From: an uncultured Bacteroidales bacterium
GTDB lineage: Bacteria; Bacteroidota; Bacteroidia; Bacteroidales; Bacteroidaceae
Direction: 5' to 3'
Assembly: GCA_937896105.1 (NCBI GenBank)
Contig: CALBKR010000339.1
Coordinates: 1 to 5,592 of the forward strand
DNA length: 5,592 nt
Shown here: piece by piece, positions 1,141 through 2,604 of the stretch
Numbering within the stretch: position 1 is the stretch's first letter
Layout: every line of letters starts with the position of its first letter
The notes under the pieces: generated by a model
The model's input: only the letters and a program-made list of their open reading frames with translations
Told to the model about the DNA's origin: nothing
The model's database searches: none
Position numbers and translations under genes: made by a program

Positions 1141-2604
1141 TTATTCGGGACGACTGTAATTTGGAGCCTCACTGGTAATGGAGACATCGTGCGGATGACT
1201 CTCGAGAACACCGGCATTTGTTATGCGCACAAACTTTGCATTGTGCAATGCCGCAATATCCTTCGCACCGCAATATCCCATACCGGAACGCAAACCGCCC
1301 ACCAGCTGATAGATAACCTCGTAGAGTGTTCCTTTGTATGGTACACGCGCAGCAATGCCCTCGGGCACAAGTTTTTTCTTGTCGGCAGTATCGGCCTGGA
1401 AATAACGGTCTTTCGAACCATTCTCCATAGCCTCGAGCGAGCCCATGCCACGATATGTCTTGAACTTACGGCCATTAAAGATGATGGTATCACCCGGTGA
1501 CTCCTCGGTGCCCGCAACAAGCGAACCAATCATCACGCAGTAGCCACCCGCCGCCAATGCCTTAACAACATCACCCGAGTAACGCAAAGGCACGCCGGTA
1601 CCCTCGAGTGCTTTAGCTACATCATACACAGCCGATAGCTGCGGCACACCGACACCGGCAACCACACGGGTTGTACAGATAGAGCCAGGGCCGATACCTA
1701 CCTTTACAGCATCGGCACCTGCATCGGCAAGCATCTTTGCAGCCTCGCCTGTTGCCACATTGCCGACAACGATATCAATATGCGGATACATAGCCTTTGC
1801 TTCTTTAAGCTTCTGCACCACTCCGGCCGAATGACCGTGCGCTGTATCAATAATTATGGCATCTACGCCGGCCTCTACAAGAGCCTTTATACGCTCCATT
1901 GCATCAACAGTGACACCGACACCGGCAGCTACGCGCAAACGTCCCTTGCTATCCTTGCAGGCCATAGGTTTGTCCTTAGCCTTTGTAATATCCTTGTAAG
2001 TTATTAGACCAACGAGCTTACCTTCATTGTCGACAACAGGCAGTTTCTCGATTTTATTCTCGCGCAGTATCTTTGCAGCAGCCTCCATATCGGTTTTCTG
2101 ATGTGTAACAACCAGTTTATCCGAAGGAGTCATTATCTCGCAGATAGGACGTGCCATATTTGTCTCAAAGCGAAGGTCGCGGTTCGTGCCTATGCCGGCA
2201 AGCCTCTTGTCATCATCGACAACAGGAATACCACCGATATGGTACTCGGCCATAATATCGAGGGCATCCTTCACTGTAGCCTGTGCAGAGATTGTAACAG
2301 GGTCATATATCATACCATTCTCGGCGCGCTTTACAATGGCAACCTGATGAGCCTGTTCTGCGATGGACATATTCTTGTGGATTACGCCAATACCGCCCTC
2401 ACGGGCAATGGCGATAGCCATCTTTGCCTCGGTAACGGTATCCATAGCAGCTGTCACGAAAGGCACGTTCAGCTCGATATTCCTTGAGAACATAGTTTTA
2501 AGGGAAACCTCCTTCGGCAACACCTCCGAATATGCCGGTATAAGCAGCACATCGTCATAGGTAAGGCCATCCATCACAATCTTTTCTTTTATAAAATCAT
2601 TCAT
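1141..2604 (-). CDS. guaB: Inosine-5'-monophosphate dehydrogenase with an internal six-residue gap
   Basis: IMP dehydrogenase oxidises IMP to XMP with NAD+ in the cytoplasm, the committed step from IMP to GMP/GTP. The 487 codons run collinearly with the family. The N-terminal barrel part has L-T-Y-D-D-V-L-L-I-P at 14-23 and A-A-M-D-T-V-T at 52-58. Two CBS domains span about 98-205. The NAD-side motif D-T-A-H-G-H-S is at 253-259. The catalytic loop G-I-G-P-G-S-I-C-T-T places the nucleophile at Cys310. M-I-G-S-L is at 358-362, the flap Arg-Tyr pair at 400-401, and G-G-L-R-S-G-M-G-Y-C-G at 436-446. The odd point is G-T-G-V-P-L followed directly by R-Y-S-G-D at 335-345: relatives have I-A-D-G-G-(I/L) between L340 and R341. 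That loss removes the aspartate and glycines that bind the IMP ribose and phosphate, so activity is doubtful although the frame is open. Restoring six residues would give 493, near the usual bacterial length. The ATG at 2604 suits the conserved N-terminus. The gene sits 27 bases after recQ. Confidence 0.95.
   Translation of the reverse strand: MNDFIKEKIVMDGLTYDDVLLIPAYSEVLPKEVSLKTMFSRNIELNVPFVTAAMDTVTEAKMAIAIAREGGIGVIHKNMSIAEQAHQVAIVKRAENGMIYDPVTISAQATVKDALDIMAEYHIGGIPVVDDDKRLAGIGTNRDLRFETNMARPICEIMTPSDKLVVTHQKTDMEAAAKILRENKIEKLPVVDNEGKLVGLITYKDITKAKDKPMACKDSKGRLRVAAGVGVTVDAMERIKALVEAGVDAIIIDTAHGHSAGVVQKLKEAKAMYPHIDIVVGNVATGEAAKMLADAGADAVKVGIGPGSICTTRVVAGVGVPQLSAVYDVAKALEGTGVPLRYSGDVVKALAAGGYCVMIGSLVAGTEESPGDTIIFNGRKFKTYRGMGSLEAMENGSKDRYFQADTADKKKLVPEGIAARVPYKGTLYEVIYQLVGGLRSGMGYCGAKDIAALHNAKFVRITNAGVLESHPHDVSITSEAPNYSRPE
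1579..1590 (-). other. guaB: In-frame deletion junction in guaB (loss of the IMP-binding I-A-D-G-G segment)
   Basis: Read on the minus strand, the codons are GTG CCT TTG CGT TAC TCG, giving V-P-L-R-Y-S. IMP dehydrogenases normally read V-P-(I/L)-I-A-D-G-G-(I/L)-R-(Y/F)-S here, so 18 bases are missing between 1584 and 1585 without changing the frame. Both flanks match the family closely. If the lost stretch ended in a TTG leucine codon, like the TTG that remains, slippage between two short direct repeats would explain it. That origin is inference; the missing residues are seen directly against the known motif. Confidence 0.85.

What the first reader, a model, noticed from the sequence alone, without database searches (positions are those of the whole stretch)
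1579..1590. guaB lacks the six-residue I-A-D-G-G-(I/L) IMP-binding segment in an otherwise intact frame
Seen directly: G-T-G-V-P-L runs straight into R-Y-S-G-D at codons 335-345, with the frame kept. Known: in IMP dehydrogenases this position carries I-A-D-G-G-(I/L). The aspartate (Asp338 in E. coli, Asp364 in human type II) contacts the IMP ribose and the glycines help hold the phosphate; the segment is also a core barrel strand. Catalytic Cys310, the flap Arg-Tyr, both CBS domains and the C-terminus are all kept, so this is a single precise 18-base loss and not general decay. Inference: the product is probably inactive in GTP synthesis. The strain would then need guanine or xanthine salvage or a second guaB, or the gap is a sequencing, assembly or editing artefact. 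A retained non-catalytic role is possible but has no support here.
Basis: partly seen in the sequence, partly recalled or inferred. Interest (0 to 1): 0.75.

Follow-up and report, generated by a model that had tools for sequence, protein, structure and literature searches.

The report
guaB gene missing its IMP-binding segment
One copy of a common housekeeping gene, from what is probably a gut bacterium, lacks 18 bases that encode part of the enzyme's grip on its substrate; no compared relative shares the loss, so it is most likely a private mutation or an error in this record rather than a new kind of enzyme.

Summary
The guaB frame (1141-2604, minus strand, 487 aa) runs G-T-G-V-P-L straight into R-Y-S-G-D, with the junction between bases 1584 and 1585. 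Homologues have six more residues here, I-A-D-G-G-L: identical in 114 of 114 listed 493-aa homologues, and present as (A/G)DGG in 110 of 110 loci read (at most 107 distinct places). The closest homologue, P0001, differs at 5 of 487 positions and has it. A junction pattern gave no GuaB match in 399 family genomes. The lost Asp343 and Gly345 correspond to Asp374 and Gly376 of M. tuberculosis IMPDH, which bind the sugar and phosphate of XMP (PMC4594927 passage). As written, the product is probably inactive (inference). It is a private lesion, not a lineage feature in anything compared. Whether it is in living cells or only in this record cannot be told: no reads, own genome or second record were reachable. 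In the likely genus, 44 of 44 genomes hold one GuaB and 43 of 44 a likely guanine-salvage gene. Low interest.

The parts
1141..2604 (-). guaB, IMP dehydrogenase, 487 codons, open frame with an internal 18-base in-frame loss
   Evidence: TIGR01302 at 595 bits (cut-off 481.5); Pfam IMPDH plus two CBS matches
1579..1590 (-). Codons 339-342 (P-L-R-Y) spanning the junction; homologues have six more residues (I-A-D-G-G-L) between L340 and R341, that is between bases 1585 and 1584
   Evidence: for coordinates; for the homologues
1675..1677 (-). Codon 310, catalytic Cys, kept
   Evidence: C310 invariant in alignment A1 of 31 sequences; coordinates computed from the gene start at 2604
1402..1407 (-). 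Codons 400-401, flap Arg-Tyr (S-K-D-R-Y-F-Q), kept
   Evidence: R400 and Y401 invariant in alignment A1 of 31 sequences; flap role recalled; coordinates computed from the gene start at 2604

Best explanation
The window carries a private in-frame deletion of 18 bases in an otherwise normal guaB. As written, the protein lacks the aspartate that holds the IMP ribose and a glycine that holds its phosphate, and loses a stretch that leads from the barrel core into the active site. It should therefore not bind IMP or make XMP. It is a loss-of-function sequence, not a lineage-wide variant enzyme. Shown: the gap, its exact size, invariance of the segment in the relatives read, and absence of the same gap in everything compared. 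Inferred: loss of activity, and that the stretch is a barrel strand (recalled). Unresolved: whether the change is a recent mutation in the cells (for example replication slippage between short direct repeats; 6 of 30 genus relatives have a TTTG/TTTG repeat exactly 18 bases apart at the matching place) or arose in sequencing, assembly or later handling of the record. I put these two at roughly 40:60, without decisive evidence.
For: Exact six-residue gap, frame kept. Segment present in 114 of 114 listed 493-aa homologues, in 80 of 80 genome loci (77 ADGG, 3 GDGG) and in 30 of 30 genus loci fetched of 44 genus genomes; three of these 110 loci repeat a place already counted. Closest homologue P0001 differs at 5 of 487 positions and is intact. 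Junction pattern: 1 match in the window, 3 matches in 399 family genomes, none encoding GuaB. Junction-region search: 7,991 matches, 120 listed, none with the same gap; of the 217 proteins held after both searches 216 have ADGG shortly before SGD/SAD, and the remaining one, P0145, has a different nearby loss. Equivalent residues in M. tuberculosis IMPDH bind the sugar (D374) and phosphate (G376) (PMC4594927, passage), with the same spacing from the catalytic Cys, +33 and +35. The rest of the gene looks constrained.
Against: No activity was measured. The protein database is clustered at 90% identity, at most 8000 candidates are scored and 120 rows listed per search, so a gap-sharing member could be hidden inside a cluster such as P0001 (8 member sequences). 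No second record of this strain, no reads and no whole genome were available. The nearest locus at DNA level is about 82% identical (L097, 81.8% over 4,121 bases), so the species itself was not seen again at DNA level. The structure models were unusable.
Confidence: 0.85

Rival explanations
1. Record error (a subdivision of the best explanation): the 18 bases are missing only from this record, through sequencing, assembly or later alteration, and the organism has an intact guaB.
For: Near-identical intact homologue P0001. Single full GuaB match in each of 44 genus genomes. The loss is the only indel in the coding sequence compared with same-genus loci and falls on invariant residues. Other guaB records in the protein database show in-frame internal duplications (P0010, P0121, P0122, P0123) or a different six-residue loss at an overlapping place (P0145), so irregular records exist.
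Against: A clean 18-base in-frame loss is not the usual homopolymer error, and a k-mer assembler needs reads that span the junction (general knowledge). No direct test was possible.
Confidence: 0.5
2. Real recent mutation (a subdivision of the best explanation): the cells carry the deletion, cannot make XMP from IMP, and live on guanine salvaged through a hypoxanthine/guanine phosphoribosyltransferase.
For: The genus has the salvage route: HPRT family over cut-off in 43 of 44 genomes and XPRT in 23 of 44. TTTG repeats exactly 18 bases apart in 6 of 30 relatives would yield the junction by slippage. Absence of decay fits a young change.
Against: No genome to check the salvage genes of this strain. 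The gene is otherwise under strong constraint. In 24 of 30 relatives that TTTG repeat is absent, and the window's parent sequence is unknown. No second observation.
Confidence: 0.35
3. A working variant: neighbouring residues take over the missing loop and the enzyme is still active or has a new substrate.
For: The frame is kept and the other listed active-site residues remain.
Against: The Asp and Gly are described as highly conserved in all IMPDHs (PMC4594927), and no compared relative shares the gap.
Confidence: 0.03
4. A retained non-catalytic role, for example nucleotide sensing through the CBS domains.
For: CBS domains are kept.
Against: No evidence of long-term retention: one record, and no sister sequence with the gap in the listed hits or the genomes searched.
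Confidence: 0.04

Closest known systems
Bacteroidaceae-type guaB / IMP dehydrogenase (TIGR01302, PF00478 with CBS pair), nearest P0001
   Same: Full-length match, same domains, catalytic Cys310, flap and C-terminus; 482 of 487 shared positions identical to P0001
   Different: Lacks I-A-D-G-G-L between L340 and R341
P0145, a guaB-like database record of 485 aa
   Same: Also lacks six residues in frame in the same stretch (P-L-I-A-D-G runs into D-V-L-K-A)
   Different: Different residues missing: the Asp is kept and the G-L-R-Y-S-G part is gone; apparently a separate event
Mycobacterium tuberculosis IMPDH2 (GuaB2) structure with XMP (PMC4594927, passages seen)
   Same: Same family; D374 and G376 sit at Cys341+33 and +35
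   Different: Has the residues that the window lacks

Membership tests
IMP dehydrogenase (TIGR01302) | Whole-protein profile score over the curated cut-off | tested here: met
   595 bits against 481.5
IMP dehydrogenase (TIGR01302) | Catalytic cysteine in G-S-I-C-T-T | tested here: met
   C310 invariant in A1
IMP dehydrogenase (TIGR01302) | IMP-binding A-D-G-G segment (sugar-binding Asp, phosphate-binding Gly) | tested here: not met
   Absent in the window; present in 114 of 114 listed 493-aa homologues and, as (A/G)DGG, in 110 of 110 loci, at most 107 distinct places
IMP dehydrogenase (TIGR01302) | Flap Arg-Tyr | tested here: met
   R400, Y401 invariant in A1
IMP dehydrogenase (TIGR01302) | NAD-dependent oxidation of IMP to XMP | not testable with these tools
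   Needs an enzyme assay
GMP reductase / GuaB1 / GuaB3 relatives | Profile score over those families' cut-offs | tested here: not met
   GMPRedGuaB1 301.2 against 675; GuaB3 TIGR01304 77.5 against 342.1; TIGR01305 173 against 492.15

The most novel reading that the evidence does not exclude
A living gut bacterium has fixed a precise loss of the IMP-binding segment and keeps the rest of GuaB for a non-catalytic task, such as nucleotide sensing or assembly, while living on salvaged guanine.
Probability: 0.03. Interest if true: 0.6.

Novelty: new member of a known kind. Interest (0 to 1): 0.2.

Why it matters
If the loss is in the cells, it is a natural guanine-auxotroph allele in a probable gut bacterium that would depend on its neighbours or its host's diet for guanine. 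If it is in the record only, it is a caution: an in-frame loss passes frame and family-profile checks, since the damaged gene still scores above the IMP dehydrogenase cut-off.

Tried and rejected
Structure prediction of the window protein and of intact P0001 was not usable. Mean pLDDT was 60.5 and 60.2 (pTM 0.55 and 0.64), and the stretches from 343 (window) and 344 (P0001) to the end were below 50, probably because the alignments given (31 and 29 rows, mostly over 80% identical) were shallow. The intact model marks a strand at 340-344 and the window model only two residues, 340-341, but the confidence is too low to count.

The idea that the missing letters lie elsewhere in the window was rejected. 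The three junction-pattern matches in the family (L081-L083) are not guaB: tblastn of the window protein against those loci gave no hit. The pattern does find the window's own junction, once, with 0 expected. General decay of guaB was rejected. Literature: one search listed 12 of 19 papers; the two that contain 'Asp338' have it only in their reference lists (passages). One search (Asp364) found 0 papers; one search listed 2 papers, neither containing D338; (guaB essentiality in Bacteroides; in-frame IMPDH losses) listed 2 and 4 papers, none on point by title and start of abstract. Kerr et al. 2000 was seen only as a title.

One regular expression missed 11 of the 80 genome loci because it demanded a leading Gly; all 80 had been read with a looser expression and have the segment. 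L001, L002 and L003 lie in the same genomes as L089, L099 and L095, so 110 loci are at most 107 distinct places. The dN/dS comparison used 20 of 30 genus loci, those whose ORF was recovered at exactly 493 codons; 3 more were 492 codons and 7 were not recovered by the start-site expression. One protein search (of 3) was not used.

Full report
What is there. The window holds, on the minus strand, the end of clpX (5005-5592), recQ (2632-4806), guaB (1141-2604) and the start of a PPIC-type peptidyl-prolyl isomerase (3-1130). The same order is seen in the relative loci L001-L003, whose record titles are Bacteroidales or Bacteroidaceae MAGs, two of them from sheep rectum and cattle colon; that the window comes from a gut bacterium of this group is an inference from them. 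guaB is an open frame of 487 codons that scores 595 bits against TIGR01302.

Observation. Codons 335-345 are G-T-G-V-P-L-R-Y-S-G-D, and the junction lies between bases 1585 and 1584. Homologues read G-T-G-V-P-L-I-A-D-G-G-L-R-Y-S-G-D. The six missing residues are identical in 114 of 114 homologues of 493 aa among the 120 listed hits; the 6 others, five of 492 aa and one of 626 aa, also carry the segment. As (A/G)DGG the segment is present in 80 of 80 genome loci (77 ADGG, 3 GDGG) and in 30 of 30 genus loci fetched, out of 44 genus genomes; three of the 110 loci repeat a place already counted. The closest homologue, P0001, differs from the window at 5 of the 487 shared positions and is intact. 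Against nine same-genus loci from eight genomes, this is the only indel in the compared coding sequence of the four genes; six of the nine loci hold only part of recQ and no clpX, and two more distant loci, L004 and L006, show other small indels as well.

Is the gap shared by anyone? A search restricted to residues 325-366 draws its words from the junction, so a protein with the same gap should rank near the top. 7,991 of 8,000 scored candidates matched and 120 were listed; none of those has the gap. Of the 217 proteins held after both searches, 216 have ADGG shortly before S-G-D or S-A-D. The exception, P0145, lacks a different six residues at an overlapping place (G-L-R-Y-S-G, keeping A-D-G). 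A degenerate junction pattern, which finds the window's own junction, matched 3 of 399 genomes of the family of L001, and none of the three places encodes GuaB.

What the segment does. In M. [quoted passage not shown] the paper calls these residues highly conserved in all IMPDHs (PMC4594927, passage seen). [quoted passage not shown] D374 and G376 lie 33 and 35 residues after the catalytic C341; in intact P0001, Asp343 and Gly345 lie 33 and 35 after Cys310. Both are among the six lost residues. [quoted passage not shown] title only, alignment of the E. coli number recalled). Loss of activity is therefore a strong inference, not a measurement. AlphaFold2 models of both proteins were too poor in this half to add anything.

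Is the gene otherwise sound? Only two residues (Gly139, and Thr383 in window numbering) are unseen in the 114 homologues. dN/dS against 20 genus relatives is 0.011 to 0.033, within the range among the relatives themselves (0.006 to 0.048, median 0.027, 190 pairs); dS is high, 1.2 to 2.2, so these ratios are rough. So the change is young or not in the organism. The nearest locus at DNA level is about 82% identical (L097), so this species is not among the loci compared.

How it could have arisen. In 6 of 30 genus relatives the segment lies between two TTTG repeats exactly 18 bases apart, so slippage between them would leave P-L-R-Y; in 24 of 30 this repeat is absent, and the window's own parent sequence is unknown. 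Equally, guaB records P0010, P0121, P0122 and P0123 show in-frame internal duplications, so irregular records of this gene exist. I cannot separate a real mutation from a record error with the data at hand.

Could the cells live with it? In the genus of L001, taken as the likely genus of the window, each of 44 genomes has one full GuaB match; eleven further, weak matches cover at most residues 90-208, the CBS-domain part. Completeness of these genomes is not given. So a second guaB is unlikely by analogy. An HPRT-family gene passes its cut-off in 43 of 44 (in the controls, 8 of 14) and XPRT in 23 of 44 (4 of 14), so growth on salvaged guanine is plausible. The window's own genome is not held, so none of this was seen in the strain itself.

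Verdict. The best reading is a private loss-of-function lesion or record error in an ordinary guaB, not a new enzyme type. Interest is low.

Noticed in passing
window 4949-4994: A perfect inverted repeat with 20-base arms and 6 bases between them, between recQ and clpX, perhaps a transcription terminator (function not tested).
   Followed up: partly
window 2188-2190, minus strand (guaB codon 139): Gly where 114 of 114 homologues have Val, in the CBS region (L-A-G-I-G-T-N-R-D-L); one of two private substitutions.
   Followed up: partly
proteins P0010, P0121, P0122, P0123: guaB records with in-frame internal partial duplications; possibly assembly products.
   Followed up: no
protein P0145: A second guaB-like record with a six-residue in-frame loss overlapping the same stretch but of other residues.
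   Followed up: partly
window 2632-4806: RecQ of 724 aa with a RecQ-1-like helix-turn-helix domain (PF21220) beyond the HRDC domain.
   Followed up: no
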